Of a DNA stretch of 64,000 nucleotides, positions 8,680-46,711 are shown in pieces (the first letter of the stretch is position 1; each line of letters begins with the position of its first letter). Position numbers and translations under genes: made by a program. This DNA comes from Argopecten irradians (Eukaryota > Mollusca > Bivalvia > Pectinida > Pectinidae): positions 69,110,469 through 69,174,468 of the forward strand of contig NC_091134.1 of assembly GCF_041381155.1 (NCBI RefSeq), written 5' to 3'. Under the pieces are notes generated by a model, which saw nothing but the letters and a program-made list of their open reading frames with translations, made no database searches and was not told where the DNA came from.

Positions 8680-9155
8680 GAATTTCCAGCCAATGAAATT
8701 TGCTCCAGGTCATATTACACTACTGACATATACAAAAAATATTACACGGGCGAAATCACTGGATATCAGGTGGATTATGTGATAAATATGTACATATATA
8801 TATATTTGTTTATTTGTATGTTTTGTTGGTTTATTTAAAGTTCTATTCATACATATATTGTTAGAGGTCAAAGTGGAAGGTTTGCCTTTATTTCAGTCCA
8901 TACTATTTATGTAATACATATAAGCTTGTATCGGAACTATACAATGTTTATCAGGGAAATGCTGAAGCAATCATTACGAAAAAAATGCAAACATGAAACA
9001 AAAGAAAACAATGCGTTTTTGTTTTTGTTACTGAGAACAAATGCCAATATGACTTATCAATTGCACATATACCAGTGACATTTCAGTGAAGCAATTATTC
9101 TATGGTACATGAATACAATGAATCAACTGGATCAGTCCATTTCCGATAGAATATA
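8680..9155. other. Intergenic sequence between the LINE remnant and the clusterin pseudogene
   Basis: AT-rich; I see no gene. It corresponds to the convergent intergenic spacer that lies between copy B and the intact clusterin-like gene. Confidence 0.4.
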
Positions 9156-9912
9156 TCCTGGTGTTGCCATCCGAACGACCCATTCTTTTCAGACTTGCTG
9201 AATGATGGGAGAACTGGAAGCTGCCCAGTCGTGCAGTCGTAGAACTGAGGACATCCTAAACGTCGTCGGTATACCTCTGATGTTAGCAGTTATCGTAACG
9301 TTACCGTAGGAGGCCTTTGTTAGAGTAACCATGACGTCATCAAATTACTCTATCTAAAAATGTAGGGCTTACAGAAAAAAAACTTTTCTATAAATAAAAC
9401 CAAAGCCAATTTCTATAGGAACGGACAAAGAAGTGGTCCCACAAAATTTACAACTATGATATGTGTCATAATGATAGCTTTAGAGATTATTGTTACCTTA
9501 ATCGAAAGCTCTTCAATCATATTCACCATTTTCCCAGTTTGGAAGGCAAACTGAACATATATTCCAGACATTTCCATTTAGTTTTCAATTTTTATTGGCT
9601 ACGTAAGGATTTTTCTGGCGTTGCTCACCTCTCCTCATCCATTGATTTCTGAACGGCCTTGACCTTTTTCATAAGTTTTCCTCCACAAACTTTACATATA
9701 AAACATTATCATGAATGGACGTAGCTTTATAATTTATAGTTCGTATCTAAAATATGTTTGTTACTATGATAACACAAACTATTGAACGTTGGAGTAAGAC
9801 TGTTGTGTCTCTGTTGACATAGTAGCCTTCACCGTGCTGGCGACAAGCTGACAAATCTGACAGCTCCATAGTAGCCTTCACCGTGCTGGCGACAAGCTGA
9901 CAAATCTGACAG
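9156..9912 (-). pseudogene. Decayed 3' fragment of the clusterin-like gene
   Basis: Only the last three exons of the gene at 16652-23382 are recognisable, in the same order and strand. The exon 7 copy is at about 9156-9350 and the exon 6 copy at about 9605-9705. The 31-nt exon 5 occurs twice, at 9882-9912 and 9833-9863, in a 49-bp tandem duplication. Exon 7 has an in-frame TAA near its start, a TGA at the Gln-Gln-Val-Trp position and a lost terminal stop. Exon 6 has lost about 16 bp, shifting the frame. No signal-peptide, alpha-chain or furin-site exon lies upstream, so it cannot make a clusterin. It sits after aminotransferase copy A exactly as the intact gene sits after copy B, so it marks a segmental duplication that broke within the fourth intron (between exons 4 and 5). 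Confidence 0.85.
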
Positions 9913-10179: not shown

Positions 10180-10800
10180 TCAAGGGGTGAAAATATTACA
10201 TTTCACGTGTATCATGTATATCAGATTTTTAACATAAAATTATTATTTATTCAGCCACCTCCATGTCTTAATTATGTTTGTAAGCACATTTGGATGGCTC
10301 ACATCTCCGACACGGCTCACTTGGCCTAAATGATGCTTCTCGTTCGAAAGTCTCGCGCTCCAAATATGGCAACTAGACTATATATGGAATGACCTACACT
10401 TTTTACTGCGAATGAAATATAATGTCAGAGAGATTTTAACATGAATTTTAAAAATTCTGTTTTACCTGTTGAGTGTTTCATTTCGTCACGGTTTCCGGTA
10501 TTAAACATGGCAGCGTATTTGAACAGAACTATATGTGTGTTGTGTTTGCCTTTGATTTTACCACTTATAGTTGATGAAACAATCGAAAGGTTTGTGATTT
10601 GAATATTGATCATAGTTGTCATAACAATAAAGTAACATATGGATATTACTGGAAAAATATATTTTTATCAGCCTAAAAATGCCCGATGTGGATCACATCC
10701 AGGCTTGCAACACTCTCGGCAATGAGGTGGAATTCATACCCTGCCGGGAACGGAGTGGAGGCAAGCTATGAATATTCATTCTAGTTTATGATGAGAACAC
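10180..10800 (+). repeat. Unclassified dispersed element of about 620 bp, direct copy
   Basis: It matches the reverse complement of 17850-18530 along its whole length, including the block with CTCGCGCTCCAAATATGGCAA and the block with TGCCGGGAACGGAGTGGAGG. It has an extra stretch of about 27 bp near 10715-10745. No coding capacity is convincing. It lies between the two segmental duplicates. Confidence 0.7.
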
Positions 10801-11320: not shown

Positions 11321-14300
11321 ATGGTTGACCTAGAGGACATTTTCCCAGAGTTTGGATCTAAGTTACGCCAAAAAGACTTTGTACTGGAAGATGGGTATAC
11401 ATTTCTGAACCATGGATATGTAGGAGCTGTTCCTAAAGCAGTGGTTGAAACCCAGCAAAGGTAAGTGTGTATGGTAGGTGTTTAGTAATAATTCCATCAA
11501 TCATTATAACTGTATAATAAACATCAAGTACTAAAATCATCGATTGTTTGGTCCTCAACATTTTCTATTATTCTTATTTCATAAGGATTTTCATGTTAAC
11601 TGAATAAAAATACTTAAATCCGCTTTAAATTTGTAAACTCCAGCCAAACTATATTTCCTTAATAAATGTATAATCCGGGTAATTTTTTATTTTTTCTTTA
11701 AATTTTTATCATTGATCATAATGCTTGTCAACGAATCTTGAAGTTACGTATATTAGACTATCATTAATCTCCTTTGAATATCACATCATTTAGTGTTCAT
11801 TATGCACATATGGGGCCTACATATATTTGTACAGGAGAATATTTTTCTATGCAATATATTCCATTTGAATATATATCTCTGCAAATCTTAATAATGCACT
11901 ATTACATTATGTACTGCCAGAATTTCAAGGCCGATTATATCGTACAAAACCAACTCGAAACCACAGAAATATAATCTTAACAAACAGTCAGTTATCCAAT
12001 GTCAAATAATAGATAATATTTTACGGAGAATCCTCAGAAAGAACTAAGGAGAAAGTTTGTGGGTCTTGAAAGGGAACGTGTGCTCTGGTATGTTGACCAC
12101 ACCAACCAAATATACCTAGACAAAATCGAGGACAGTCAAAATCTCAAACCATGACAGTGATAACGTAAACACGGAACATAAACATACGCAGTGAACAAGT
12201 CGAACCACATATAAAATATGGTATATACTATTAGGAAAAAAAACGCATGATACAATTTTGTATGTACAGTTTTCTCTATGCATCCTTGCGTTTCTCGAAC
12301 CTTCGTCACCAGTCCAAATTTATCATTGCGATATGAAAAGGATCCTTAGAATATTGAACCAGCTGGGATAGTTGTTTGCAATGCTAAAGTGATTTATTAC
12401 TGTTATTAACAAATCCATTTCCAAAAATCCTCATTTTATTTCCAAAAGTCCCCATTATATTCTTTATATAAATATAAACTGGAGTGTTTATTTGGCGTTT
12501 TTATTTGTTTTGTACCTTACCAATATGCGATTTGATAGAAACACGTCAAAGTGATACTGCTTATATTTATCATGTACAAGTCAATACTACGTAGGGTTTG
12601 ATATATAATACGCATACTGCTGATTCATTTAAAATATACTGAAGAAATAATAATAATGAGGAGTATTTAACTATTTCCTTTATAGATTCCAAGACGAGGC
12701 GAGAAGACAACCAACCAATTCGTTCATGAGAAAGAAGCAATCTAATTGGATAAAGAGTCGTGACTCCGTAGCGGAGTTTCTATACGCCGATCCGGATGAC
12801 GTCGTCCTTGTTCCAAATGTCACTTCAGGTAATTAAATAAATAATATACTACATATGTATTCATGTAATGAAAGAACCAAAATGTTGCTGTGAAGTTGTT
12901 TCAAAGAGAACAAGGTCAATGTATGTTGGTTGTTATCATACAGGTATCAACGCGATTTTGATGTCTATACCTTTCAAGGCTGGAGATACCATATTGGTCA
13001 CAAATCAGGTTTTCCTGTCTACACTGAACGCATGCGCACAGCTCTTACACCATAAAGGTTAGTGAACGTACTGTGTTATTTCCCTCCAGGTTTATAGCTT
13101 TTAAATAGTTTGCTAGATACTTTAAACACTTATTGTTCAAAATAAAAGTAAAATAGATTGAATTTATGTGCTATATATACAATTACAATATATATCAAAA
13201 TACGTTGCTCTACAGTTTATTGTATATTCAATTGATTGTTTTATTAATATTTTGTTGAATTTCTTGGCGAATAAAATCTGTCATTGTTATCAAAAATCAT
13301 TTTATCACCGAATACACGGAATGAATCGAGTTATTACTAAATGTTTGCAGCAGTGGTATAAGTCGTGCACTCTGACAACAGTTCTAGTTATCATTGTTTT
13401 CTATATAGGTATAACGAACAGTGTAGTGGACATCATCCCACCCATCAAGGACACAAATCAAGTGGTCAAACTGTACAGGGATTCGCTGGACAGTATTCCA
13501 AACATCCGGGCAGTTGTGTTAGGTATGTTATGTCATATCCTGCGATGCTTGTTTTCTTTTTCTTATGACGTTGTAATGAATGATGTGCATTTAAAACAAA
13601 TCTTCAGATATTGGCTTTATTTTTCATTTCCTTTTACATATATATATACATGTATGTGTATGTTTCTTTTTCCATTGTAAAATTTAACAATAAAACAACT
13701 AAATGACTGTTTGCCGTCCCTAATAATGCTAGTACGACATAACAGCCTCCAGTATCCTATCGATCATAACCTTGTTCCACTTATGTTCAGTTGATCCTCC
13801 ATCTTTCTCTTAATACCTCGCTATGATGCATGATGTGTTTTTGTAAATCAGGTTTGCATTTTTTTGTAAATTAGGATTGCATTACTTCCCTTGTACTGTA
13901 TTATATGAATAGTAAAATAGGAACCAGTTATAAATTACGTATATGTAACTACTAACTGTTTCAGATTATATATCGTGTCCATTTGCGATAATGTTTCCTG
14001 TGACAGAAATCGTCCAACTTTGTCAGAAGTATAATGTTGTTACAATTGTTGATGGTGCGCATGCTCCAGGACACATCCCTCTCAGTTTAAAACAAACAGA
14101 AGCTGACTTTTTTACAGGTACAGATATATTCCAATTCCAACTAGAAATTATATAAACACAAGGATTTCAATAAGCAAATCTGTACAAATCTAAACATAGG
14201 GATTGTTGACATTTCTGAAATTTTACCCTTTAATACATATTTCTTTCAAGAACTCTTTTGTGTTATCCGCAAATACTTAGTTGGAATGAAATGCAAGCCC

Positions 14301-15533
14301 TAACTGCGATTTTAAAGTGTAAGGGACTTTGATTCTTTAGAAAATCATCTGGTCCTCCTGCTGATCATTAATATCCGCTGAGAGTTAGGCCTACACCGAC
14401 GATAAATCACTTCAAAAACACTTCTCCAATTCATAGTAAAACAGAGGTCTATAAATTAAACTGGTTACTTTAGCGATTCCACTTTTTTGTTTCAGGTAAC
14501 TTCCATAAGTGGCTGTTCGCGCCCTGGGGATGTGCCTTCGTGTGGAAGAACAAGAGGTTGACTTTCCCGCTAAGGTCCCTCACCAGCTCCGCCGCAAATG
14601 CTGATATTGCGTCTCAGTTCTGTATGCAAGGAACCAGAGACGATAGCTGTTTTTATTCCTTACCGACCGCAATACAGTATATTAGAAAAAAAGGAGGACT
14701 TGTGAGTAAATATATCTAGATATAATCAACGACCGAAAATAAAACTGACTTTACGTTTGTCGCAAATACCGCTATTTGTTTATATCACATGATAATGATC
14801 ATCAAGTCTTTCTTTATATATATATATATATTTTTTTTAACAGAAAAAAATCTGAAGGCTGCCACGGTTTTGGCCTTGGGGTCAGCCTTCAAAAATATAA
14901 ACAAATGTTCCCACACAGGAGGGCTCTCATTCACCACACAACTTACATACATGTACTAGATGACTCATCACATTCATACCATCAACATAGACATTTATCA
15001 CAAAAACATCACCTTCACTCAATTTTTCATAGTCTTTTATAATTTTTTTTTAATTTTTTCTTTCAAAGGAGAAAATTTCTGCGTACAATACCCGACTTTT
15101 ACAAATGGCGTCCGAGTACCTTGTAAGGCTGTGGCAGACGAGTACATTAGACATCCCGACCTCCATGGAGCCACCATTCCTAAGGATGGTCCGTCTGCCG
15201 GATATCTATGGATTTAGCACCTCCCAGGTATCTAGTTTACAATTACTATAACGAAAGTTTACATGGGCATGTGATCTATACCTGAAGTTGAATGAAACAT
15301 ACATCTGCCCATTTAAGAAACAGTTTGGTTATAATTAACAGGACGATATCCAATCCCTGATGGACCTAATTTACCATGACCATAACATAGACGTCTGTCT
15401 GAAGTCCGTTAAAGACCAGCTGTACGTCCGTTTGTCTGTTCACATCTACAACTGTCTGGATGATTATAAGAAACTTGGGAATGCTGTCTTGTCGCTGGCG
15501 GATAGAGGAAGACGCAAAGATTACGGATTCTAA
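11321..15533 (+). CDS. Class V PLP-dependent aminotransferase (isopenicillin-N-epimerase-like), copy B, complete
   Basis: Eight coding exons: 11321-11460, 12686-12828, 12944-13057, 13409-13522, 13965-14117, 14496-14701, 15069-15227 and 15342-15533 (TAA). They sum to 1221 nt, or 406 residues. The ATG starts MVDLEDIFPEFG and the exon soon reaches FLNHGYVGAVP, the usual N-terminal substrate/cofactor loop of this family. Exon 5 has VDGAHAPGH (Asp200, His203) and exon 6 has GNFHKW, predicting Lys226 as the PLP Schiff-base residue. There is no signal peptide, so it is probably cytosolic. Length fits the family (about 400). Substrate is unknown; an epimerase, lyase or desulfurase role is possible. 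The gene faces the clusterin-like gene tail to tail. A 3' UTR of about 720 nt would end near the AATAAA at 16250. Confidence 0.92.
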
Positions 15534-16513: not shown

Positions 16514-16519
16514 TTTATT
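16514..16519 (-). terminator. Poly(A) signal AATAAA (minus strand) of the clusterin-like gene
   Basis: AATAAA on the minus strand, about 135 nt past the clusterin-like stop at 16652-16654, would give a short 3' UTR. Confidence 0.45.
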
Positions 16520-16651: not shown

Positions 16652-19600
16652 TCATGGTGTTGCCATCCGAACGGCCCATTCTTTCCAGACTTGCTGAGCG
16701 ATGGGAGAACCGGAAGCTGCTAAGTCGTGCAGTCGTAGAACTGAGGACATCCTAAACGTCGTCGGTATACCTCTGATGTTAGCAGTTATCATAACGTTAC
16801 CGTAGGAGGCCATTGTTGGATCAACCATGACGTCATCAAACTCGACCTACAAAAAGATTAAGGCTTAAAAGTAAAACTCTATAAAATAAAACCAAAGCTT
16901 ACAAGGATGGACACAGAGGGAAAAAATTTGCTAGCTGATCACCTTTACCCTAATTAAAACCATAACAAATCATGTTCCCAGATCATTTACGGAAATATGT
17001 TTTTTTGAATTAAAAAGAGTAATTAGAGTATGATTACCATGGTGATGATGTTCTGGGAGTTGATGACCTCTCCGTAAATCTGGTTGAGCTCATCCATTGA
17101 TTTCTGAATGGCCTTTACCTTGTCCACAAGGTTCCTCCCACAAACTGTACATTTAAAATCAGACTATTAATGACCGTACATAGTTATATAATGTATAGTT
17201 CTTATATGCATTTGTTATTATGTAGATATTATACAAATATAGCATTTTGATGAGGTCGAATCATGGTTATATCGACCAAAGAAAACATATTGACCGAGGA
17301 CGTAGTCCGAGGTCGATATTTTTTCTGTGGTCAATAAAACCATGTATTGACCGAAATCAAAATGCTATAATTGTTTTATTATTTTTCTGGATTTTTTACA
17401 TTTTGAAATGAGTGTGAAACTAAATAAGCACGCATTGCAAATTCTGCTTCGTGAAGACAGTTACAATCTTATAATTTTGTAACAAGTTTAGTTTAAAAAC
17501 AACAAATGAAAACAGTATCAATTGATGCACTTCATGCTTTTATTACATGCACCCGTTGCATGCGTGATTGTAAATTGCATACATGTACTGTACATGTACT
17601 CCATTATACCTGTAGCTCCATGGCGGACACAGTCAATTAAATGTATAGTTTGTTCTTCGTTGAAATAATCCACTTCGACGCCAAACATAAATTAAAGATT
17701 CAGATTGACATTAAGATACATTCTCTTATGCTTAGTACTCCATTTCGTAAAATAAAATCGTATACATACAGAAGGATTAGCTTAGGTCTAATGTTGCTAC
17801 TAGCCTAGGTGGAATTTTTAAAATAAACATCAAATGTATTCACTATCCAATGGCTCCAGTAGAACGAATAATCATACACTGCCTCCACTCCGTTCCCGGC
17901 AGTTAGTGTTGCAAGCCCTGATGTGATCCACATCGGGTACTTTGAGACTGATAAAAAAAAATCGGGTAATATCCTTATGTAACTGTATTGTTCTGACAAC
18001 TATAATCAATATTCAATTCACAAACCGTTCAATTATCATGTTTCATCAACTATTAGTGATAAAATCCAAGGCAAACACAACACATGTATAATTTTGTTCA
18101 AATACGACGCCTTGTTTGATTTACCGGAAACCGTGACGAAATGAAACACTCAAAATATGTTTAAAAGTTTTAAAAAGCCAACAAACTAAGAATAAACATG
18201 GTGAAACTGAACAAATGTAAGTATTATATAAAATTTAGAGAAAAAGAATTTTTAAAGTTCATGTTATAAACTTTGTGACATCATATTTCTTTCGTAGTGA
18301 AATTTGTAGGTCTTTCCATATATGGTACTAGTTGCCATATTTGGAGCGCGAGACTTTCGAACGGGAAGCAACATGGCGGCCAAGTGAGCCGTTTCGGAGA
18401 TGTGAGCCATTCAAAAGTGCTTAAAAACATAATTTAGAAATTGAGGTGGGTAAATAAATTTTGTGTTAAAAATGTTTGATATTGTTGAATTTAATTACAA
18501 AATTACATGACACACATGAAATGTAACATTTTCACCGCTGAAGTTTTGCACCACTACGGTCAATGGGACGGAATAGTAGATCTGACGACGACCATCTGTC
18601 AGAAATTTTCTGTCCGTCGTTCAGAGCTTCGTCATCGCAGCTATGGCTCCAGATGCTTAATGAATGTTATTCGATTATTTCCTACTCTCCTACCGTGATA
18701 ATGTTGAAAATTTAAAAGTTTAAACTGTAGTAATCAGCTGGAAGTCATCATCATCTTTGATAGAAACCAAAACAATCAAAGTCGTCTATCACATTTTGTG
18801 GTTACGCTTTAAACTCAGGTCATCAAAGCGTTTGTTTCAAAGCGCCAGGAACACGAAGCGTTTTGGTAACGTAGATGATTATAGTATCTAAAAATAAACT
18901 ACTTCCGGAAAACTCGTTTTTATTGGTGATCTCGTGGCGTATTTTTGACCAATGAGAAGTGACAAAAAATCCAGAAAAATGATAAAAAATTATTAAACAC
19001 TGGTGTAAGGGTGTACATCTGATGAAACAAATGTCAATTTTACCGTGCAGGCGACAAACTGACAAATGGAACAGCTACACAGACAATATAACAACACTGT
19101 AATCTAAATTATATTAAAATATATCAGACCAAAACCAAATGAAATTCATGTATATCTAGACCTAATTCGGGCCAAGGTCTCACACGGGTGCGATAGGTGA
19201 CAACGGAACATTAATATAAGTTAGACGTACTGCGCAACTCTGTCTTAGTAGCGCTTGAGATCATGATGTCAACCTAAAGCATAGGAATAGGATCTGGAAA
19301 TTGGACGAATTGACTCAGAAAAGAAATAAAGATGTGATTACCTGGAAAATAAATCTCCATAATGGATAAAGGACTTTGATCATCAACATTATGACAGCCA
19401 GTAAGGAAAATAATAAGATATCTGCTTGTTATCTTGCCAACAGTCTTATATCAAAAGGAATATAACTACCAAAATAAAACGGGTTTCCGGATTATTGAGT
19501 TTTATTAGTATAATGTCCCATTAAAAGCCAATGTCATGTAAGGAAGTGCCTGGTTTATTAGTGGAGAGAAGCCGACGTACCCGGAGAAAACCACCGGCCA

Positions 19601-22600
19601 GCGGTTAGTACCTGTAGTAATAGTAACTGCCCCACATGGAATTCAAACTCGCGATCTAGAGAGGAGGGCTTATGGTAACATGTCGAGACATCTTAACCAT
19701 TTGGTCACTTGTCAGATTTTGGTTGATGTACCTGTTACCATGGTATCCTGTCGGGTGCTGGGACATGACGAGCATTGCGGGGTCAGACTGGCACAGTTCT
19801 GGGACAAACTGCCGAACAGGAAGCTACACTCCTGGACCGCGCGTCTCCGTCGTCTACCCATAAATGTCCCGTCTGGAATGTGATAAATAATAATGTAAAT
19901 ATTTTACTACAGTGCCATTAACATTATATCATATGGGCATATGTATAAGGAAAAATATAATGTTGATATTCTACTACATAGACATTATCATTACATCATG
20001 TAGGTCAATGTATTAGGAAAAATATAATGTTGATATTCTACTACATAGACATTACATTATATCATATGGGCATATGTATTAGGAAAAATATAATGTTGAT
20101 ATTCTACTACATAGACATTACATTACATCATATGGGCATATGCATTAGATAAAATAATAATGTTAATATTCTACTACATAAACATTACATTATATCATGT
20201 AGGTCAATGTATTAGGTAAATAATAATGTTAATATTCTACTACATAAACATTATCATTACATCATGTAGGTCAATGTATTAGGTAAATAATAATGTTAAT
20301 ATTCTACTACATAGACATTATCATTACATCATGTAGGTCAATGTATTAGGTAAATAATAATGTTAATATTCTACTACATAGACATTATCATTACATCATG
20401 TAGGTCAATGTATTAGGTGAAATAATAATGTTAATATTCTACTACATAAACATATACATGACATTATGTTAAGATCAGCATTTCGATCCGCCATCTAAAA
20501 TATTAATTATAGGGCTACTTTCAGTCATTTATCAGCTTTCACATCATCAAAGAACAAACATTTGATTTGAAAGCATAAAAAGCTTCACAGCATTAATCAT
20601 TCTTGTTGCTCTATTTACTATTTATCAATTAAAAACATCGACAGAGAAAAAATCCACGACGTGGAAAAGAAATGTAGAGAAGGAATAATTCTTGTTTTAC
20701 AAACTAGTACGATTGATTACCAAACATGTGTGACAAAGACTGTGAGAGTTGTTGGCTGAAATCCTGTCCCCATTGTGACATGGAGTCCCCGAAGGTATTA
20801 AGGTTGTGGTTCATCTGGCCAAGGTTAGCATGTAGCTGGCCCATGGATTGCTGAACACCCTGTCCAATGTTGTGTCCCATCGTTGAGAGAGACTGACTCA
20901 GATGCGCCATCGACTGTTGTAACTGTGCTTTCTCTTCATCTGTCATGTTTCGCACGACATTATTGGCTACATGGTTAAGACCCCCCACGAAGCTCCCGAC
21001 CGCCATGTTGCCTAGATCACCATACACCCTACCGAGGTTAATACGAAGATTGTCGCCGATCTGAGAAATCGAGTTCACCATGAATCCTTCAGGGTTCATA
21101 ATAGTAGAGCACGTGCGGGAAAATTGACTTCCGGTCAAAGAACAGACGGTCACCTGACTATGACCGTTGATATTGTTACTAGATACTGACATTCCGCCGG
21201 GCGAGTGCATGCTAAATGTCAGCGATTGGCATTGTTGGAATCTGAAATAAGAAGAAATGACAATCAATATTACATAGTATATATCGTAATTTTAGCATAC
21301 ATCTTGAAAATCTTTTAAAATTTACTTTTTCCTAACAACAAGTGGGGTGCTGTATGGCTATATGTTGACGTCTAGTCAAGCCTGTTAGCCAGTAGGACGG
21401 TAGGCTGACCATTGCGTAAAGTATATGAAAGAAAGAACAATATTTAAAACCCCTCACCACAGACACCAAAGTGAGTATTTCGGTCTGCCGGTAGGGAATG
21501 CATTCTTAATTGATTACAAAGCATACAAATTAACGAAAAAACAAACAATGCCGTTAAAATGTCATCATTAATGGTATGGGAAAAGAAAATATAAATTATT
21601 AATAATCATTAAACATAACAAATTGTTTTAATATTTCAGACATACAATCAGATAAAGGAAATAAATGTGTATTGAGTGACAGGTTGATGAACACTTACTT
21701 TTGCTGACAAACATTGTCGACACACTGAAGACAGTGACCGAGTGAGTCGTTGACCTTTCTCTGACAGCTGGTCAGTTGTGGCTGGATACCAGCCATGTAC
21801 GTTTTACTGGACTCCAGCTCAGTGGTCACTTTGGTCAGTAAAGCCTTTCTCACCTGTCTGTTTAATGCTGAAATAAAACCATATAGTTGATGGCCATTTA
21901 TCATTAATATAAAAAATTTTGATCAGCTCTTCTGAGAATGTAATCGCCGATGAAACATCGATGATAACCAATCTATATAGCATTAAGTGTAACACAATAA
22001 AGCTTAAAAGTAAAGTAAAACACTCTTCGTAACTAAACATGTTTGTATCTTCCAAATTTTCGACTCATTCGATCTTTCTCAAGGGCAAATCGTACGTATT
22101 CTTTAATTTCCAGTTGTTTTCCTTCTAGTTTTCTTATTGTAAATATGATTAAAGGACAATCTATATTTAAGTTAAGTTTGGGTCCAATCGAGGATATCTC
22201 TTGGAATGGGATCAGACCAAACAAAAGGCGCACTGATTAAATCACCTAAAATAGCAAACATCACTAGAAAACATCATTTCGGTCTAAAAAAAAGTGTAAC
22301 AAGTCGGGGTCTGCATTCTTTAAAACATGTGATCAATATGGACTTCAAACATCTTAACTATAGGAAATCGAATTGCCTCGGTAATTGTGTCATGGCATGC
22401 ATATACACCGAGATGTATAATTAGATCTGACAATAACAGCTCTGGTTAACTAAAATATCTTAAATGGGTTTCAGAAATATGATAAACAACTCTACAGTCT
22501 ATTCAGTCTAATTAGGTTTTATCATATTCTTTCATTTGATATCCATTTATCTGTAAACCCTCTCTAAGATTTATCTAACTTGACAAAAATTGTGAAAATC

Positions 22601-23382
22601 ATTCAAAGGCAAGGCCAAAAGTTTGACCATTTGTAAATATCACGATTTTTGGCAATACAGCCAAAATTTCTTTTGGGTTCTTATTTGACTTTATAATGCA
22701 TTGCATTGTAATTCTTGAAGGTTAAAGAGGTTCCATCGCCGAGAGAGAATAAGCGATACAATTATTGATATTTAATCATGTTATATATATATGTCTAATT
22801 AATACAAAAAATTTAAACAATATATTTTGCATTTGGTGCATGCGCTATCAGTACTTCATTTCATATAAGACATACAATCAAGGAATTTTTCAGGACGCAA
22901 TTAATTATTTTATCTTGAGGTAAAAATAAAAGCTCACAATTTTCAATGGTGGTAATGGTGTAAAGTAAGTAACTTTTGTAACTAAAGAAAAATAAAATTC
23001 GTCTGCTCCTGCTTTTTATTGAGAAAATCTTTAAAATTGCAGGTAACCTTTGACATAAATAAATTTCTTTTTTAATCAGTATAAAAACATATAACTTATG
23101 TCTACTTTTAATGCAAAATAAATCAATATTCATTAATTTATTCGTATATTCCTTATCTATTTACCTTATTTATATGTATTATCTTATTTATAAACCTATT
23201 CATTTATATTACTTATTTTGTTTATCTATTTCATTTATTTTTGTTTTGATATCAGATTCATACTTACTATCGAGATTTGCCGGATCCAGCAGCCGCCTGT
23301 GGGGAACTGTGGGTTGAGGTGGTGCCAATGTGGCTCCCCACACCCCACCTAGAATCGCCAGTCCTAAGATTACCCTCAACAT
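16652..23382 (-). CDS. CLU-like: Clusterin-like secreted chaperone, complete seven-exon gene
   Basis: Exons in transcript order: 23382-23268, 21867-21699, 21241-20721, 19872-19739, 19074-19044, 17144-17038 and 16846-16652 (TGA). All phases match; total 1272 nt, 423 residues (vertebrate clusterin is about 450). Residues 1-17 form a signal peptide (MLRVILGLAILGGVWG). Cys73, 84, 87, 92 and 99 follow the clusterin alpha-chain pattern C-x10-C-x2-C-x4-C-x6/7-C. RRRRR at 275-279 is a furin-type site where clusterin is cut into alpha and beta chains. Cys284, 295, 302 and 305 follow the beta-chain pattern C-x9/10-C-x6-C-x2-C; the fifth partner would be Cys320 or Cys325. Residues 180-268 are Gln/Ser/Met/His-rich and amphipathic, and the C-terminus resembles the clusterin C-terminal strand-helix module. 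Clusterin is an extracellular ATP-independent chaperone; that role here is inferred. The 31-nt exon 5 is the least certain, though both copies keep it and its phases fit. Confidence 0.8.
17234..17373. mobile_element. Palindromic MITE / fold-back element, about 140 bp
   Basis: The two halves are near reverse complements. TAGCATTTTGAT at 17240 pairs with ATCAAAATGCTA ending at 17367, and CATGGTTAT pairs with ATAAAACCATG further in. Inverted repeats of about 60 bp meet at a short centre. It has no ORF and lies in the intron between clusterin-like exons 5 and 6. A target duplication is not clear. Confidence 0.7.
17850..18530 (-). repeat. Unclassified dispersed element, inverted copy in a clusterin-like intron
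   Basis: This is the reverse-complement counterpart of 10180-10800, inside the intron between clusterin-like exons 5 and 6. The opposite orientation shows that it did not arrive with the segmental duplication but moved separately. Confidence 0.7.
19490..19705 (-). mobile_element. tRNA-related SINE in a clusterin-like intron
   Basis: Read on the minus strand it begins with an A-box-like GGTTAAGATGTC, then a degenerate B box (GAGTTTGAATTCC), a GGTGGTTTTCTCCGGGTAC body and a tail ending in GGCTTTTAATGGGACATTA. I associate this architecture with a widespread mollusc SINE group; that is from memory, not a search. It ends about 30 bp from the donor of exon 4 (19739). Confidence 0.6.
19895..20460. 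repeat. 67-bp minisatellite in clusterin-like intron 3, about 8-9 units
   Basis: The phrase ATATTCTACTACATA recurs every 66-68 bp (19971, 20038, 20104, 20171, 20237, 20304, 20371, 20439). Units alternate between ATATGGGCATATG and ATGTAGGTCAATG variants. The array starts about 25 bp upstream of the exon 4 acceptor. Confidence 0.9.
22770..23060. repeat. Dispersed repeat of about 290 bp, copy 1 (clusterin-like intron 1)
   Basis: It matches the reverse complement of 45205-45490 over its length, sharing TATATATGTCTAATTAA, GGTGCATGCGC, GCAATTAATTATTTT and TTTTCAATGGTGGTAATGG. No ORF is credible; probably a non-autonomous transposon. Confidence 0.65.
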
Positions 23383-24376
23383 ATCTCCAATATATCTAGA
23401 TAAGAGCAGTGTAAAGCTTTGTCAGACTGTCACGTCTACAAATGCTTTCTGCGTCTCTTATATGGAAGTGATATAGCTAAACCACAATCGGCTAAGGTCA
23501 GACAACTCTACACCAATACATATGGGCCTGGGGCGCATTTCACGATAGTCGTTCACGCCTCAAGATGAACAGCAGACATTATTTGTTTACATGTTGTCTC
23601 TATTTTAAAAAATGAAAAATCTACCTTTCTATCTTTATCGTGTTTGGTATGGTTATGCAATTAACTATCGTGATGTACATATCATTAACAATGAAAATTC
23701 TGTATATTTAAGTCCTACCAAATCATTCATAACTTTCAGTATTGGAAAACCTGACCAATATTTCAGTCATTTATATCATCTAGAACCCCATCGGTGCCCC
23801 TGTAGATGTTGTTGGTGCTCCATAATTGTGTCTGAGTTTTTGTCACCTGCATTTGTCTTCGTTCCCATATTTAACAGCCTACAGTAGACCAGCCTGTAGA
23901 TAAGAACGCCTGTCTGCAGTAGCGCGGTGCACACTCTAGTCCGCCCATCATTCTCTACGTACATCAAAGTGCGATCGGCTAAACACTTCCTCCTGTTGTT
24001 TACATGTTCCATTATGTAATCAATTATTACTCAAGAAAATTTCCTATTGATATAATTAATGCCTAACTAGGCGTATGGCAAAATATGATGTGTACCTAGT
24101 TGTACTAGTTCAGGGTCAACTATAACTAAATACCTAAGCTATGTCGTAATATGTCTTCTTATTTCCTAGAAAGCGTACTGACAATTTATATTTCAGTTGT
24201 GGAGACTAATTGGTGCAAATATCATATTTAAATGATCATCTTATAACATTTAATACAGCCTTAGACAGAAGGACAGAATTTGTGGCATATGTAAGTAACT
24301 GATGTTTTCATACAGAAAATAATAATAATTTCAATCTTATTTTATGTTCAGGTTCTGTTGAAGCTACTTTGTATCT
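23383..24376. other. Upstream region of the clusterin-like gene
   Basis: Contains the TATA-like box near 23460. A 78-codon minus-strand frame at 23776-24012 has no recognisable domain and no clear link to a gene, so I do not call it. The 67-bp satellite begins at the right edge, about 1 kb from the start codon. Confidence 0.4.
23455..23464 (-). promoter_or_regulatory. TATA-like box of the clusterin-like gene
   Basis: CATATAAGAG on the minus strand lies about 75 bp before the clusterin-like ATG, which fits a TATA box with transcription starting near 23430 and a short 5' UTR. Confidence 0.4.
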
Positions 24377-27300
24377 AGTATCATGGCTCACCAAAGATCT
24401 CCAAAACATACATCACGTTAAGCTGCTTGTTTGTTTATTATCTAGTATCATGGCTCACCAAAGATCTCCAAAACATATATCACGTTAAGCTGCTTGTTTA
24501 TATGTTAACTAGTATCATGGCTCACCAAAGATCTCCAAAACATATATCACGTTAAGCTGCTTGTTTGTATATTATCTAGTATCATGGCTCACCAAAGATC
24601 TCCAAAACATATATCACGTTAAGCTGCTTGTTTGTATATTATCTAGTATCATGGCTCATCAAAGATCTCCAAAACATATATCATGTTAAGCTGCTTGTTT
24701 ATATGTTATCTAGTATCATGGCTCACCAAAGATCTCCGAAACATATATCACGTTAAGCTGCTTGTTTATACGTTAACTAGTATCATGGCTCACCAAAGAT
24801 CTCCAAAACATATATCATGTTAAGCTGCTTGTTTATACGTTAACTAGTATCATGGCTCACCAAAGATCTCCAAAACATATATCATGTTAAGCTGCTTGTT
24901 TATATGTTAACTAGTATCATGGCTCACCAAAGATCTCCAAAACATATATCATGTTAAGCTGCTTGTTTATATGTTATCTAGTATCATGGCTCACCAAAGA
25001 TCTCCAAAATATATATCATGTTAAGCTGCTTGTTTGTTTATTATCTAGTATCATGGCTCACCAAAGATCTCCAAAACATATATCATGTTAAGCTGCTTGT
25101 TTATACGTTAACTAGTATCATGGCTCACCAAAGATCTCCAAAACATATATCACGTTAAGCTGCTTGTTTATACGTTAACTAGTATCATGGCTCACCAAAG
25201 ATCTCCAAAACATACATCACGTTAAGCTGCTTGTTTGTTTATTATCTAGTATCATGGCTCACCAAAGATCTCCAAAACATACATCACGTTAAGCTGCTTG
25301 TTTGTATATTATCTAGTATCATGGCTCACCAAAGATCTCCAAAACATATATCACGTTAAGCTGCTTGTTTGTTTATTATCTAGTATCATGGCTCACCAAA
25401 GATCTCCAAAACATATATCACGTTAAGCTGCTTGTTTGTTTATTATCTAGTATCATGGCTCACCAAAGATCTCCAAAACATACATCACGTTAAGCTGCTT
25501 GTTTGTATATTATCTAGTATCATGGCTCACCAAAGATCTCCAAAACATATATCACGTTAAGCTGCTTGTTTATATGTTAACTAGTATCATGGCTCACCAA
25601 AGATCTCCAAAACATATATCACGTTAAGCTGCTTGTTTATATGTTAACTAGTATCATGGCTCACCAAAGATCTCCAAAACATATATCACGTTAAGCTGCT
25701 TGTTTATACGTTAACTAGTATCATGGCTCACCAAAGATCTCAAAAACATACATCACGTTAAGCTGCTTGTTTGTTTATTATCTAGTATCATGGCTCACCA
25801 AAGATCTCCAAAACATATATCACGTTAAGCTGCTTGTTTGTATATTATCTAGTATCATGGCTCACCAAAGATCTCCAAAACATACATCACGTTAAGCTGC
25901 TTGTTTGTTTGTTATCTAGTATCATGGCTCACCAAAGATCTCCAAAACATATATCACGTTAAGCTGCTTGTTTGTATATTATCTAGTATCATGGCTCACC
26001 AAAGATCTCCAAAACATACATCATGTTAAGCTGCTTGTTTGTATATTATCTAGTATCATGGCTCACCAAAGATCTCCAAAACATACATCACGTTAAGCTG
26101 CTTGTTTGTATATTATCTAGTATCATGGCTCACCAAAGATCTCCAAAACATACATCACGTTAAGCTGCTTGTTTGTATATTATCTAGTATCATGGCTCAC
26201 CAAAGATCTCCAAAACATATATCACGTTAAGCTGCTTGTTTGTATATTATCTAGTATCATGGCTCACCAAAGATCTCCAAAACATATATCATGTTAAGCT
26301 GCTTGTTTGTATATTATCTAGTATCATGGCTCACCAAAGATCTCCAAAACATACATCACGTTAAGCTGCTTGTTTGTATATTATCTAGTATCATGGCTCA
26401 CCAAAGATCTCCAAAACATACATCACGTTAAGCTGCTTGTTTGTTTATTATCTAGTATCATGGCTCACCAAAGATCTCCAAAACATATATCATGTTAAGC
26501 TGCTTGTTTATATGTTATCTAGTATCATGGCTCACCAAAGATCTCCAAAACATATATCATGTTAAGCTGCTTGTTTGTATATTATCTAGTATCATGGCTC
26601 ACCAAAGATCTCCAAAACATACATCACGTTAAGCTGCTTGTTTGTATATTATCTAGTATCATGGCTCACCAAAGATCTCCAAAACATATATCACGTTAAG
26701 CTGCTTGTTTGATATTATCTAGTATCATGGCTCACCAAAGATCTCCAAAACATATATCACGTTAAGCTGCTTGTTTGTATATTATCTAGTATCATGGCTC
26801 ACCAAAGATCTCCAAAACATATATCATGTTAAGCTGCTTGTTTATACGTTAACTAGTATCATGGCTCACCAAAGATCTCCAAGACATATATCACGTTAAG
26901 CTGCTTGTTTGTATATTATCTAGTATCATGGCTCACCAAAGATCTCCAAAACATATATCACGTTAAGCTGCTTGTTTATATGTTAACTAGTATCATGGAT
27001 CACCAAAGATCTCCAAAACATATATCACGTTAAGCTGCTTGTTTATATGTTAACTAGTATCATGGCTCACCAAAGATCTCAAAAACATATATCACGTTAA
27101 GCTGCTTGTTTGTATATTATCTAGTATCATGGCTCACCAAAGATCTCCAAAACATACATCACGTTAAGCTGCTTGTTTGTATATTATCTAGTATCATGGC
27201 TCACCAAAGATCTCCAAAACATATATCATGTTAAGCTGCTTGTTTGTATATTATCTAGTATCATGGCTCACCAAAGATCTCCAAAACATACATCACGTTA

Positions 27301-28919
27301 AGCTGCTTGTTTATATGTGATCTAGTATCATGGCTCACCAAAGATCTCCAAAACATATATCATGTTAAGCTGCTTGTTTGTATATTATCTAGTATCATGG
27401 CTCACCAAAGATCTCCAAAACATACATCACGTTAAGCTGCTTGTTTATACGTTAACTAGTATCATGGCTCACCAAAGATCTCCAAAACATATATCATGTT
27501 AAGCTGCTTGTTTGTATATTATCTAGTATCATGGCTCACCAAAGATCTCCAAAACATATATCACGTTAAGCTGCTTGTTTGTATATTATCTAGTATCATG
27601 GCTCACCAAAGATCTCCAAAACATATATCACGTTAAGCTGCTTGTTTGTATATTATCTAGTATCATGGCTCACCAAAGATCTCCAAAACATACATCACGT
27701 TAAGCTGCTTGTTTATATGTTATCTAGTATCATGGCTCACCAAAGATCTCCAAAACATATATCATGTTAAGCTGCTTGTTTGTATATTATCTAGTATCAT
27801 GGCTCACCAAAGATCTCCAAAACATACATCACGTTAAGCTGCTTGTTTATATGTTATCTAGTATCATGGCTCACCAAAGATCTCCAAAACATATATCATG
27901 TTAAGCTGCTTGTTTGTATATTATCTAGTATCATGGCTCACCAAAGATCTCCAAAACATACATCACGTTAAGCTGCTTGTTTATACGTTAACTAGTATCA
28001 TGGCTCACCAAAGATCTCCAAAACATATATCATGTTAAGCTGCTTGTTTGTATATTATCTAGTATCATGGCTCACCAAAGATCTCAAAAACATATATCAC
28101 GTTAAGCTGCTTGTTTGTATATTATCTAGTATCATGGCTCACCAAAGATCTCCAAAACATATATCACGTTAAGCTGCTTGTTTGTATATTATCTAGTATC
28201 ATGGCTCACCAAAGATCTCCAAAACATACATCACGTTAAGCTGCTTGTTTATATGTTATCTAGTATCATGGCTCACCAAAGATCTCCAAAACATATATCA
28301 TGTTAAGCTGCTTGTTTGTATATTATCTAGTATCATGGCTCACCAAAGATCTCCAAAACATATATCACGTTAAGCTGCTTGTTTGTATATTATCTAGTAT
28401 CATGGCTCACCAAAGATCTCCAAAACATATATCACGTTAAGCTGCTTGTTTATACGTTAACTAGTATCATGGCTCACCAAAGATCTCCAAAACATATATC
28501 ACGTTAAGCTGCTTGTTTATATGTTATCTAGTATCATGGCTCACCAAAGATCTCCAAAACATATATCACGTTAAGCTGCTTGTTTGTATATTATCTAGTA
28601 TCATGGCTCACCAAAGATCTCCAAAACATATATCACGTTAAGCTGCTTGTTTATATGTTAACTAGTATCATGGCTCACCAAAGATCTCCAAAACATATAT
28701 CATGTTAAGCTGCTTGTTTGTATATTATCTAGTATCATGGCTCACCAAAGATCTCCAAAACATACATCACGTTAAGCTGCTTGTTTATATGTTAACTAGT
28801 ATCATTGCTCACCAAAGATCTCCAAAACATATATCACGTTAAGCTGCTTGTTTGTATATTAACTAGTATCATGGCTCACCAAAGATCTCCAAAACATATA
28901 TCACGTTAAGCTGCTTGTA
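24377..28919. repeat. 67-bp satellite array, about 68 units
   Basis: Units read AGTATCATGGCTCACCAAAG and onward, repeating every 67 bp with very high identity. Variation is concentrated in one spot (TGTATATTATCT, TGTTTATTATCT, TATATGTTAACT or TATACGTTAACT) plus a CACG/CATG switch. Variants recur in runs, which suggests multi-unit amplification. No ORF spans it. It ends within a unit near 28919. Confidence 0.97.
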
Positions 28920-30654: not shown

Positions 30655-32250
30655 CAAGAGGCCCAGAGGGCCTGTATCGCTCACATGGTTTGTAATGCCA
30701 AGTAATGTTCTGAATACAGGTTCATTGTTTCTTTTCTTAAGGAATTTTAATATTAACCTCTAAATCCCCTATTGGGCCCCACCCCTCCTGCGCCCGGGGG
30801 GTCAGATTCTGTTCCCCTTCTCACAAGGGTGTTTATGGTCAAATTTGGTCACAATCCAAGCAAAACTCCAGGACAAGTAGCGATTTATAGGATTTACCTC
30901 TATTTCCCCTATTGGGCCCCACCCGTCCTGCCCCCGGGGGCCAGAGCCAAAATTTATACAAGATCTGTTCCCCTTTCCAAAAAGGATGTTTGTGGCCAAA
31001 TTTGGTTACATTCCATTCAGAACTGTATGACTAGTAGCGATTTAAAGGATTTACCTCTATTTCCCCTATTGGGCCCCGCCCCTCCTGCCCCCGGGGGGTC
31101 AGAGCCAAAATTTATACAAAATCTGTTCCCCCTCCCCCAAGGATGTTTGTGGCCAAATTTAGTTACAATCCATGCAGAACTCTATGACTAGTAGCGATTT
31201 AAAGGATTTACCTCTATTTCCCCTATTGGGCCCCGCCCCACCTGCCCCCGGGGGATCAGAGCCAAAATTTATACAAGTTCTGTTCCCCTTCCCCCAAGGA
31301 TGTTTGTGGCCAAATTTGGTTACATACCATTCAGAACTCTATGACAAGTAGCGATTTAAAGGATTTACCTCTATTTCCCCTATTGGGCCCCGCCCCTCCT
31401 GCCCCCGCAGGACCAGAGCCAAAACTTATACAAATTCTGTTCCCCTTCCAAAAAGGATGTTTGTGGCCAAATTTGGTTATATTCCATAAAGAACTCTATG
31501 ACTAGTACAGATTTAAAGGATTTACCTCTATTTCCCCTATTTGGCCCCGCCCCTCCTGCCCCCGGGGGGTCAGAGCCAAAATTTATACAAGTTCTGTTCC
31601 CCCTCCCCCAAGGATGTTTGTGGCCAAATTTGGTTACAATCCATGCAGAACTCTATGACTAGTAGCGATTTAAAGGATTTACCTCTATTTCCCCTATCGG
31701 GCCCCGCCCCTCCTGCCCCCGGGGGGTCAGAGTCAAAATTTATACAAGTTCTGTTCCCCTTCCCCTAAGGATGTTTGTGGCCAAATTTGGTTACATTCCA
31801 TTCAGAACTCTATGACTAGTAGAGATTTAAAGGATTTACCTCTATTTCCCCTATTTGGCCCCGCCCCTCCTGCCCCCCGGGGGGTCAGAGCCAAAATTTA
31901 TACAAGTACTGTTCCCCCTCCCCTAAGAATGTTTGTGGCCAAATTTGGTTACAATCCATGCAGAACTCTATGACTAGTAGCGATTTAAAGGATTTACCTT
32001 TATTTCCCCTATTGGGCCCCGCCCCTCCTGCCCCCGGGGGGTCAGAGTCAAAATTTATACAAGTTCTGTTCCCCTCCCCCAGGGATGTTTGTGGCCAAAT
32101 TTGGTTACAATCCATGCAGAACTCTATGACTAGTAGCGATTTAAATGAAATGTTGACGGACAGACGGACGACGGACGACGACGGACGACGGACGACGGAC
32201 GCCGCGCCATGACATAAGCTTACCGGCCCTTCGGGCCAGGTGAGCTAAAA
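30655..32250 (+). mobile_element. Non-autonomous Helentron/HINE-like element 1
   Basis: The 5' end has ACAAG followed by a hairpin (AGGCCC-AGA-GGGCCT, 30659-30673) and TCGCTCAC. The interior is eight to nine tandem units of about 158 bp (30757-32140), then a GACG/GAC microsatellite (about 32150-32202). The 3' end has a hairpin (GGCCC-TTC-GGGCC, 32225-32237) followed by AGGTGAGCTAA. The GCTCAC/GTGAGC pair forms a short subterminal inverted repeat. Hairpin plus CTAA at the 3' end and a tandem-repeat core are the organisation described for Helentron-derived interspersed elements; the class is my inference. Open frames inside follow the repeat and are not genes. It lies directly beside the 3' end of the gene at 32280. 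Confidence 0.6.
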
Positions 32251-32279: not shown

Positions 32280-33169
32280 TCATCGTGAACTAGGAATCTC
32301 AAAGCGGATCATATGTGTGTTCGCTTTCGGAACAGCTAACAATGTTTTCTGTTGAGAGAGATTTAGCGATCTTCTCCTCTTTCGTTCCTCCTCAAACAAG
32401 TTTGGAGGTAACAGACCTGCGCTCTTTGGCACCGATTTAATCTTCTGTCCAAACACCCGACCTCCATGCTGCTTGTGTGTCTCCCGAAGTCGGGAGTATA
32501 TGTCATTTCCAGTGTAAATTACGTTGCCTCCGTTTTCCTCACTTGGCCGTGTTTTAGTCGGAATATTTACTGTGTCCATTTGCGGGATTTTTATTAAGAG
32601 TTTTTCCAGTTTCTCTGGAGCCACTAACGACCGAGGGTGAACGTCGATGTTTGGAAAGTTTTTACTTTGTTGGTGCGCACTCTTGCTTCGTTTGCGGATC
32701 TGAGTACAGTCTTTACAATAATATGATCCTAGTACTTCGCAGTGTGACATTTGCTGACATTTATCGCCAGTGTATGATTGTCTGGCACATACCTGGCCGT
32801 ACCTTCTCTCTCCTCTAGCACTCACTACCCGGTCTCGGATTTTGTTATGGTAACAGGACGTTGTAGCATTGTTGATGATCTGATAGGCTTTACTTTGTAT
32901 AGCATGCTGTGTTGCTTCGTCGTGAACAGGGGTGTTTGGTCGGGCGAAAACTTGACTTTTCTGCTGACCGATCATCTGTGTCAGTATCCGAAGATTAGTT
33001 TGAAACGCGGCCTTTTCTACCTGGGTTTCTAAGCGGCTATCCAGCATCACTAGTCCTAATGGCCGCGTTCGGCCTCTTCGCCGATGCAACATCCGTCCGG
33101 AAGTAGCTGAAGCTGACTGCGCACGCCTCCTTATCGAACCCGAAGTGCCTAGGACATCATCATTTGAAC
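32280..33169 (-). CDS. Terminal coding exon of an unrecognised basic protein
   Basis: An open frame of 890 nt runs from a good acceptor (CTATTTTCAG, ending at 33170) in phase 1 to TGA at 32280-32282, giving about 296 residues of the C-terminus. It is rich in Arg, Lys, Ser and Gln (for example SIRRRAQSASATSGRM and EEERKRRRSLNLS). It has one Cys/His cluster (DKCQQMSHCEVLGSYYCKDC) that could bind zinc, and no membrane segment. I do not recognise the family. Base composition is clearly richer in GC than its surroundings and the frame stays open, so I believe it is a real exon. Upstream exons were not found; they would lie beyond 33.2 kb, possibly beyond the 8.4-kb satellite. The acceptor side holds a direct repeat of about 27 bp (33190-33243). 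Confidence 0.6.
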
Positions 33170-34579
33170 CTGAAAATAGACAGTAAAAAGCAACGTTGAT
33201 GGAATTGTTGGACAAGGTAACGTTGATGGAATTGTTGGATAAGGACTTTAATAAGATGAAAGTAAATCTGGTACAATGCAAACTGTCTATTATCTGTCCA
33301 GTCATATACAGTAGGTATGGAAATGATTCGTGATGGTGCAATGTATTGCTGACCGTAGGACTTTATTTCATGCATACAAAGATAAGAGGATTATTTCTGT
33401 CTACTGTTTTCCTAAATCAATACCGTTTGTGGATAATATGGCTCATGCTGGTGACACAAAGCTTTGTTCCGTCGCCATTCAGCAGACACACACAAATCGT
33501 TTCAAGTTACAATAAACAGATATCAGGCGTAATAACATTTTCAACAGTTTATGTCATATTTCCGTTTCAAAATATTCATAAAATACAATAAACAAACTTA
33601 TGTATGGAACATATGATTGATAAGATTGGAGTAATATATTGTCTCATGGTTGATATGTAATGTTTCACTAAATCATCAATTGATACCCGATCTGTCTTCA
33701 TCCGATCAAAATCCCTCTCATACTAATTGATAAGGATTATTCCTTGACCCACAATTGTGTATCCAAAATCTTTTGTCATCAATAAGTAATAGTTCCTAAC
33801 AGCATAATGATAAAAGAACCATTTGTCCCAGAAAAGCTAGCGTTCTGTTTCATAACGATAAAAACAAATCAAATCCAGTTCAATCTAAAATTTCTTGTGA
33901 TATTTTGATGATAGCAGTTACAATTTCCCTGTAAGACCGTGAAATCGACTGTACAACATTCCCCCAATCTTCGTCAAGTGTACCAACGTGTCTGTATATT
34001 GGACATCAGTCAACATCAGTCACGACCGCCAATGGTCTAAAACATGTAATATCGTGTCCCTTCGGCATGTTAATATGTATGATACCATCACAACCTAGGA
34101 GTATTCACTTATTTTTTTATTCAGATTAGCCAATAATGGTGTTTGAACATTAACACATTTATTTGTAAGATATTAACGGAGTCGGTGAAACAACTTACGG
34201 TAAGTACTACTATTTACTGTAAATGGCTGGTATTATCTCCTAAACTTATACGGTCTACACTTCATGTTTACTTTCTTTATTTACTCTGGTGGTCGATCAT
34301 TTAAACGTTTATTTAAATTACACCCGGTCGGTGGTTCTTTTATTAGATCTTACCGCCCATCAAACACACCGTGTGGACCCAATATCAGACTATAATATTG
34401 GGTATAAAAGCGCCATTGATGTTAACATGTGTACCCTGTTAATGCGGATCTCAATCAAATGTCCTTTTACAACTGACAACTTCACAGGTTTAAAACGTAA
34501 CAGGCATCACCAACCAGGATTTTCTCCTAATGCTGTTGATATGTACACCACTAATATGTCCCTCGGTCGAATTCCGAAG
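33170..34579. other. Intron or flank upstream of the basic-protein exon
   Basis: A direct repeat of AACGTTGATGGAATTGTTGG occurs twice in 33190-33243. Otherwise AT-rich with no exon I can support. The 50-bp satellite starts at the right edge. Confidence 0.4.
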
Positions 34580-46176: not shown

Positions 46177-46711
46177 TTTGTTTGTTTGATTAATTAATGT
46201 CCTATTAACAGCCATGGTCATATAAGGACGGTCTCCCATGCATGCTATGTGTTGCGTGTATGTTGTGCGAGGTGCGTGTTTTGGGAGACTGCGGTATATT
46301 CATGTAGTGTCTTCTTGTATAGTGAAACTGTTGCCCTTATATAATATATAGTGCTATATCACTGTAGCATGCCGCCGAAGACACCAAGCAACACACCCCA
46401 CCCGGTCACATTATACCGACAACGGGCGAACCAGTCGTCCCCCTCCCTGTATGCTGAGCGCTAAGCAGGAGCAGAAACTACCACTTTTATAGACTTTGGT
46501 GTGTCTCAGCCAGGGGACAGAACCCAGAGCCTTCCTTGCAGGGGCAAACGCTCAACTCAAGGCCAAAAGTGAGGCGGTGCCAAGGGAGGCATTAGGAAGG
46601 ATAAAGTCAGTTAGTAGAGAAAAGAAAAGAAAAGATCCTAAATTTAGTCGCCTTTTACGATCATGCAATAGGGGCAGCAGGTACAATTCTAACGCCCTAC
46701 CTGCAGGGCAG
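46177..46711 (-). mobile_element. Long SINE-like element inserted in the 31-bp array
   Basis: On the minus strand it ends with ATGACCATGGCTGTTAATAG and a TTAATTAATCAAACAAACAAA-type tail, the tail type of the mollusc SINE group. It also carries GTAAAAGGCGACTAAATT near its other end. It is flanked by ATGTAGGTTACA on both sides (46165-46176 and 46712-46723). This could be a 12-bp target duplication, but the same words belong to the host array. Confidence 0.6.

What the first reader, a model, noticed from the sequence alone, without database searches (positions are those of the whole stretch)
16652..23382. Complete clusterin-like gene in a probable bivalve genome
Direct: seven exons with matching phases encode a signal peptide, five Cys spaced 10-2-4-6, an RRRRR furin-type site, four Cys spaced 10-6-2 and an amphipathic central region. 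Knowledge: vertebrate clusterin has alpha Cys spaced 10-2-4-7, beta Cys 9-6-2-7, furin cleavage between chains, and pairs them antiparallel. Inference: this is a genuine ortholog or ancient relative of clusterin, best known from vertebrates. I cannot say whether it is already described in molluscs.
Basis: partly seen in the sequence, partly recalled or inferred. Interest (0 to 1): 0.85.

Follow-up and report, generated by a model that had tools for sequence, protein, structure and literature searches.

The report
Clusterin-like secreted protein gene
An unidentified, probably animal, genome carries an intact-looking gene for a secreted, two-chain, disulfide-linked protein laid out like clusterin, a vertebrate chaperone that works outside cells; if they are true relatives, clusterin could be far older than thought, but sequence searches alone do not prove the link.

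Summary
A gene-like, spliced minus-strand structure lies at 16652-23382. Six exons join in phase into a 415-residue product. Without it, the C-terminal chain has a fifth, closer cysteine.

Layout: signal peptide, five Cys (10-2-4-6; human 10-2-4-7), Cys pair, long helices, RRRRR, five Cys (10-6-2-11; human 9-6-2-7), then a predicted strand-strand-strand-helix end, the element order of human clusterin's C-terminal domain. In a simple null the two spacings together recur at about 6e-7.

Against: Pfam Clusterin is not listed at an E limit of 10 (human control 3.5e-158); PDB phmmer misses clusterin; HMM-HMM comparison is no better than shuffles; Foldseek on two single-exon models finds nothing significant. 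No relatives were available, and the whole joined product was not folded.

Verdict: a probable, very distant clusterin relative by architecture; not a demonstrated family member. The species, and 'bivalve', were not tested.

The parts
23268..23382 (-). coding exon 1: start codon, signal-peptide-like MLRVILGLAILGGVWGA, 38 codons + 1 base
   Evidence: donor ATA|GTAAGT in top 6.7% of window sites, GC 0.565
21699..21867 (-). coding exon 2: Cys 73, 84, 87, 92 (spacing 10-2-4)
   Evidence: acceptor in top 2.1% and donor in top 3.7% of window sites
20721..21241 (-). coding exon 3: Cys 99 (completes 10-2-4-6), Cys pair 128/139, long helical region
   Evidence: AlphaFold2 of this exon alone: helices at product residues about 153-191 and 196-267, mean pLDDT 62.6
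19841..19855 (-). RRRRR, furin-type cleavage site (residues 275-279)
   Evidence: read; that furin cuts it is inferred
17038..17144 (-). fifth of six coding exons: Cys 317 (fifth Cys of the second chain) and an amphipathic stretch
16652..16846 (-). last coding exon with stop: 64 residues, predicted strand-strand-strand-helix-helix
   Evidence: AlphaFold2, single sequence, mean pLDDT 70.6, pTM 0.51
16514..16519 (-). AATAAA, possible poly(A) signal
17880..17939 (-). alternative frame-compatible exon, rejected: poor splice sites, inside a repeat inverted at 10183-10783
9156..9690 (-). decayed duplicate of parts of the last two exons (pseudogene fragment with in-frame stops)

Best explanation
The gene encodes a secreted protein, very distantly related to clusterin, that works as an extracellular holdase and lipid-binding protein. 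Steps: (1) A signal peptide sends the 415-residue precursor into the ER (read from the sequence, standard inference). (2) Five Cys of the first half (73, 84, 87, 92, 99) pair antiparallel with five of the second half (317, 305, 302, 295, 284), as in human clusterin; Cys 128 and 139 pair with each other (inferred from spacing and order). (3) A furin-like protease cuts after RRRRR (275-279), leaving a 262-residue and a 136-residue chain held by the disulfides (inferred; a 17-residue signal peptide is assumed). (4) The long helices (about 153-267) and the Phe/Met-bearing end next to the cut bind exposed hydrophobic patches of misfolded proteins, or lipids, in body fluid (inferred from clusterin's mechanism in PMC12527946). 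Because RRRRR ends only 4 residues before the first Cys of the second chain, cleavage would leave one long tail, on the first chain, rather than the two that human clusterin has.
For: Ordered match of Cys spacings on both sides of a basic site: 10-2-4-6 and 10-6-2-11 against human 10-2-4-7 and 9-6-2-7 (my human letters matched the 7zet chain over 23-213 and 237-449). For the part after the cut, the best alignment of the six-exon product to human clusterin pairs the second to fifth Cys and the start of the next helix; 15 of 2000 shuffles reach its score. The last exon is predicted as three strands and helices; the human AB domain is a three-stranded sheet around the last helix (PMC12527946 section 6). 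Long helices follow the first Cys cluster. Below-threshold Pfam match of 190-265 to the apolipoprotein A1/A4/E domain, E 1.4e-4 in the 435-residue and 1.6e-4 in the 415-residue form, 22 bits against a cut-off of 90. Phe is 11% of the 36 residues ending at the cut and 14% of the human tail region 204-238.
Against: No Pfam Clusterin match is listed at an E limit of 10 (HMMER's filters drop most matches above about 0.1) for the 435- and 415-residue products or for an N-terminal and a C-terminal piece (the C-terminal piece was of the 435-residue form). Single-sequence HMM-HMM score 17.3; at least 10 of 100 shuffled copies score 18.3 or more. Whole-length local alignment: 24 of 500 shuffles reach the score for the 415-residue form and 155 of 500 for the 435-residue form; N-terminal part 137 of 2000, and its best alignment pairs no cysteines; last 110 residues of the 435-residue form 107 of 2000. 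With Cys masked, the C-terminal chain scores below the shuffle mean (1871 of 2000 reach it) and the N-terminal part only a little above (98 of 2000). Clusterin is not among the 50 Foldseek rows shown for either exon model. The cleavage site lies 4 instead of 57 residues before the second cluster; an extra Cys pair is present; 98 instead of 136 residues follow the last Cys; 2 N-glycosylation sequons against six N-glycans in human. No expression evidence.
Confidence: 0.55

Rival explanations
1. An unrelated secreted, proteolytically split, disulfide-linked protein (for example an apolipophorin-like or matrix protein of body fluid, egg or shell) whose Cys spacing resembles clusterin's by convergence or chance.
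For: No family-level sequence signal to clusterin. Weak apolipoprotein-like helix signal. A loose likeness to clusterin has been claimed for other Cys-rich secreted proteins: cuttlefish egg-case proteins with 50 and 55 Cys (PMC4500399, passages).
Against: Two Cys signatures in the right order around a cleavage site (about 6e-7 in a simple null), a terminal unit with the expected order of strands and helix, and a fifth Cys brought close by a splice argument made on other grounds.
Confidence: 0.35
2. One reading: a 31-base repeat-derived exon is used, placing 19 residues between the fourth and fifth Cys of the second chain. (This concerns the transcript and does not exclude the other explanations.)
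For: Strong splice-site scores for the exon (8.1 and 9.5); frame kept (423 residues); use of SINE sequence as exon is a known process (recalled).
Against: The exon lies in a repeat; the six-exon path needs no extra exon, has a better exon-4 donor (6.5 against 4.3) and a more clusterin-like Cys spacing.
Confidence: 0.15
3. A decaying gene that no longer makes a protein.
For: The locus sits in a tandem duplication in which the other copy is a fragment with stops.
Against: All six exons of this copy are open, with usable splice sites, start, stop and an AATAAA. No selection test was possible.
Confidence: 0.05

Closest known systems
Clusterin / apolipoprotein J (Pfam PF01093; human CLU, PDB 7zet, 7zeu)
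   Same: Signal peptide, two five-Cys clusters with closely similar spacing on either side of a basic cleavage site, long helices between, amphipathic stretch after the second cluster, C-terminal strands plus helix.
   Different: No Pfam or phmmer match; last gap of the first cluster 6 not 7, second cluster 10-6-2-11 not 9-6-2-7; cleavage site 4 not 57 residues before the second cluster; extra Cys pair; 55 not 79 residues before the first Cys and 98 not 136 after the last; two N-glycosylation sequons.
Clusterin-like protein 1 (CLUL1), vertebrate paralogue (recalled)
   Same: Recalled as sharing the clusterin domain.
   Different: No sequence was at hand to compare; not tested.
Apolipoprotein A1/A4/E domain (Pfam PF01442)
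   Same: Weak match at residues 190-265 (E 1.4e-4), in a predicted long helix.
   Different: 22 bits against a cut-off of 90; no Cys clusters or cleavage site in that family (recalled).
Cuttlefish egg-case proteins SepECP1/2 (PMC4500399, passages)
   Same: Mollusc secreted Cys-rich glycoproteins that the authors liken to clusterin.
   Different: 50 and 55 Cys in three domains with motif CX2GX2CCXGCCX8-9C; this product has 12 Cys and no CC pair.

Membership tests
Clusterin (PF01093) | Profile match at the curated cut-off (23.6 bits) | tested here: not met
   Not listed at an E limit of 10 for the 435- and 415-residue forms or the 99- and 153-residue pieces; human control 527.6 bits
Clusterin (PF01093) | First five-Cys cluster with spacing close to the human 10-2-4-7 | tested here: met
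   10-2-4-6, one residue short in the last gap
Clusterin (PF01093) | Second five-Cys cluster with spacing close to the human 9-6-2-7 | tested here: inconclusive
   10-6-2-11 in the six-exon model; 10-6-2-19 in the seven-exon model
Clusterin (PF01093) | Furin-type site between the clusters | tested here: met
   RRRRR at residues 275-279, between the clusters but close to the second; cleavage itself not testable
Clusterin (PF01093) | Five antiparallel inter-chain disulfides | not testable with these tools
Clusterin (PF01093) | C-terminal roll: three-stranded sheet around the last helix | tested here: inconclusive
   Order of elements agrees, but 0 of 575 Foldseek matches reach E<=0.001 and clusterin is not in the 50 rows shown
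Clusterin (PF01093) | Sequence similarity above chance outside Cys | tested here: not met
   Cys-masked alignments: 98 of 2000 (N-terminal part) and 1871 of 2000 (C-terminal chain) shuffles reach the score
Clusterin (PF01093) | Shared intron positions and phases with vertebrate CLU | not tested
   No vertebrate CLU gene sequence was at hand
Apolipoprotein A1/A4/E (PF01442) | Profile match at cut-off (90 bits) | tested here: not met
   22 bits

The most novel reading that the evidence does not exclude
This is an invertebrate (perhaps protostome) member of the clusterin family: the two-chain, five-disulfide extracellular chaperone arose before vertebrates, and invertebrate members went unseen because only cysteines and fold are kept. 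The invertebrate form, with one tail instead of two, would show which part of the chaperone is ancestral. The species was not determined here.
Probability: 0.4. Interest if true: 0.75.

Novelty: new variant of a known kind. Interest (0 to 1): 0.5.

Why it matters
Clusterin is called a conserved vertebrate secretory glycoprotein in PMC12527946 (passage), and the alignment figure there names ten jawed vertebrates (the species of its wider set of 242 sequences were not shown in what I read). A distant invertebrate relative would push back the origin of this extracellular protein-quality-control system. It would also give a naturally rearranged version (cleavage next to the disulfide core, one tail) for testing which tail and which cleavage are needed for chaperone activity.

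Tried and rejected
Relatives: none found in viral contigs (4 stretches matched a pattern, 0 confirmed) or in the bacterial and archaeal genome contigs (7 matched, 0 confirmed); these collections are not expected to hold animal genes, so this says nothing about animals. No genome is held for the window.

Exon 17939-17880, giving a 435-residue product with 14 Cys: rejected for poor splice sites and because it lies in a repeat. That form was used, before I rejected it, in the PDB phmmer search (435-residue form only), in one of the two whole products, and in the C-terminal piece.

Foldseek for exon 3 ranks DnaK substrate-binding domains first (best E 0.01, TM 0.35); set aside because the strand part of that model has pLDDT of about 50 or less and no hit reaches E 0.001. 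Foldseek for exon 7 gave a best E of 0.31.

Literature: ten searches used. Eight papers were opened: PMC12527946 (sections 6 and 7 in full, passages elsewhere); passages only of PMC9892467, PMC7472309, PMC12939704, PMC12313776, PMC10425349 and PMC5489563; passages and outline of PMC4500399. The 'clusterin' mentions in the two bivalve papers opened were clusterin-associated protein 1 (PMC9892467) and human CLU (PMC7472309). One search found 65 papers and listed 40, of which six were opened; the rest of the listings were not opened. One search was spoiled by matches to 'clustering'. I saw no mollusc clusterin in these listings and passages; papers outside the open library were not searched.

SINE identity: it resembles a tRNA-derived SINE of the kind recalled as MetaSINE in bivalves; a paper looked up for that name, by a recalled DOI, is not held and ARAGORN finds no tRNA gene in the window, so only 'SINE-like' is claimed.
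Full report
WHAT IS THERE. The minus strand of 16652-23382 holds a spliced gene structure. Six exons (23382-23268, 21867-21699, 21241-20721, 19872-19732, 17144-17038, 16846-16652) with GT-AG borders join at phases 1, 2, 1, 1, 0 into a 415-residue ORF with a stop. Exons have GC 0.46-0.57, introns 0.26-0.36. The ten splice sites of the six exons score in the top 0.4-15.6% of all such dinucleotides on that strand, with a rough consensus matrix whose frequencies I recalled. An AATAAA begins at 16519. There is no transcript evidence.

The 423-residue product is reproduced exactly with exon 4 ending at 19739 and a 31-base exon at 19611-19581. It lies, however, in a stretch of about 200 bases with a TGGTTAAG A-box-like and a GTTTGAATTCC B-box-like motif (motifs recalled), and the tail of that stretch recurs at 46184-46228 and 55525-55570 (46 bases, 80-83% identity). 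I read it as an intronic SINE. The choice between the models rests on the repeat and on donor strength; only transcripts can settle it.

ANATOMY OF THE PRODUCT. Cys lie at 73, 84, 87, 92, 99, 128, 139, 284, 295, 302, 305, 317; RRRRR at 275-279. Human clusterin has 102, 113, 116, 121, 129 and 285, 295, 302, 305, 313. Two N-glycosylation sequons lie at 78 and 193. AlphaFold2 on single-exon translations, without alignment, gives strands 3-8, 18-24 and 27-33 and helices 10-13, 36-44 and 48-62 for the last exon (mean pLDDT 70.6, pTM 0.51), and for exon 3 two long helices (58-96 and 101-172 of the piece, product residues about 153-191 and 196-267) after low-confidence strands (mean pLDDT 62.6, pTM 0.33). 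Human clusterin has a three-stranded antiparallel sheet wrapped round its last helix and a coiled coil of long helices (PMC12527946 section 6). The agreement is in order and class of elements; no superposition was made.

TESTS OF HOMOLOGY. For: Cys spacing, 624 and 3,889 of 2,000,000 random placements; the post-cleavage part aligns with human clusterin better than all but 15 of 2000 shuffles, pairing four of the five Cys of that chain. Against: Pfam Clusterin is not listed at an E limit of 10, with the caveat that the filters drop most matches above about 0.1, while human scores 3.5e-158; phmmer of the 435-residue form against PDB lists five sequences at E up to 10, none of them clusterin; whole-length local alignment is reached by 24 of 500 shuffles for the six-exon product and 155 of 500 for the 435-residue form; the N-terminal part is reached by 137 of 2000 and its best alignment pairs no cysteines; the last 110 residues of the 435-residue form by 107 of 2000. 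Single-sequence hhalign score 17.3 is exceeded by at least 10 of 100 shuffles. With Cys masked the signal is gone in the C-terminal chain (1871 of 2000) and marginal in the N-terminal part (98 of 2000). Foldseek found no match at E<=0.001 among 575 (exon 7) and 353 (exon 3) matches; only the first 50 rows of each were shown, clusterin not among them. Clusterin homologs are said to share only about 15% identity among themselves (PMC12527946 section 7), so a weak sequence signal at greater distance is expected, but it means the case rests on architecture.

HOW IT MOST LIKELY WORKS. By analogy with human clusterin, whose disordered hydrophobic tails made by furin cleavage are critical for chaperone activity (PMC12527946, passages), the product is probably secreted, cross-linked, cut at RRRRR and used as a holdase or lipid carrier. 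Shown here: order of elements, Cys positions, presence of a basic site. Inferred: secretion, pairing, cleavage, function. The main difference is that the cut would leave a second chain starting 4 residues before its first Cys, with no long N-terminal tail.

SURROUNDINGS. The left part of the window is a tandem segmental duplication. Pieces of a class-V aminotransferase gene lie between 11321 and 14647 on the plus strand (hand-joined pieces: PF00266, E 6.3e-22), with pieces of a second copy between 30 and 4507; blastn pairs the two units further, to 6761 and 15516. The matching second copy of the clusterin-like gene, 9036-9746, keeps only parts of the last two exons (last exon: 179 of 195 aligned columns identical). 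It has a TAA in the codon position just before the conserved stretch of the last exon and a TGA near its end, so it is a fragment. It gives no evidence of purifying selection on the gene.

VERDICT. Convincing gene structure; exon count corrected; clusterin-like architecture well supported; clusterin membership not met on the profile test and left open on fold. Taxon not determined: nothing here tested 'bivalve'.

Noticed in passing
window 30-4507 and 11321-14647, + strand: Pieces of two tandem copies of a class-V aminotransferase (PLP) gene, with a GNFHKW stretch in both; part of a segmental duplication that includes the clusterin-like gene.
   Followed up: partly
window 9036-9746, - strand: Truncated duplicate of the clusterin-like gene's 3' end, with in-frame stops.
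   Followed up: yes
window 10183-10783 and 17860-18539: A repeat of about 600-680 bases present in inverted orientation in the two duplicated units (78-80% identity), possibly a mobile element.
   Followed up: partly
window 24372-28918, 34579-42958, 46713-51204, 55941-59743, 61997-63138: Large tandem arrays with units of about 67, 50, 31, 46 and 50 bases fill much of the right part of the window.
   Followed up: no
window 30807-32145: Array of about 157-base units with several open frames of 99-144 codons, reading repeats such as GPAPPAPGGSEPKFIQ.
   Followed up: no
window 32283-33362, - strand: A 360-codon stop-to-stop frame without any Pfam match at E 0.1.
   Followed up: no
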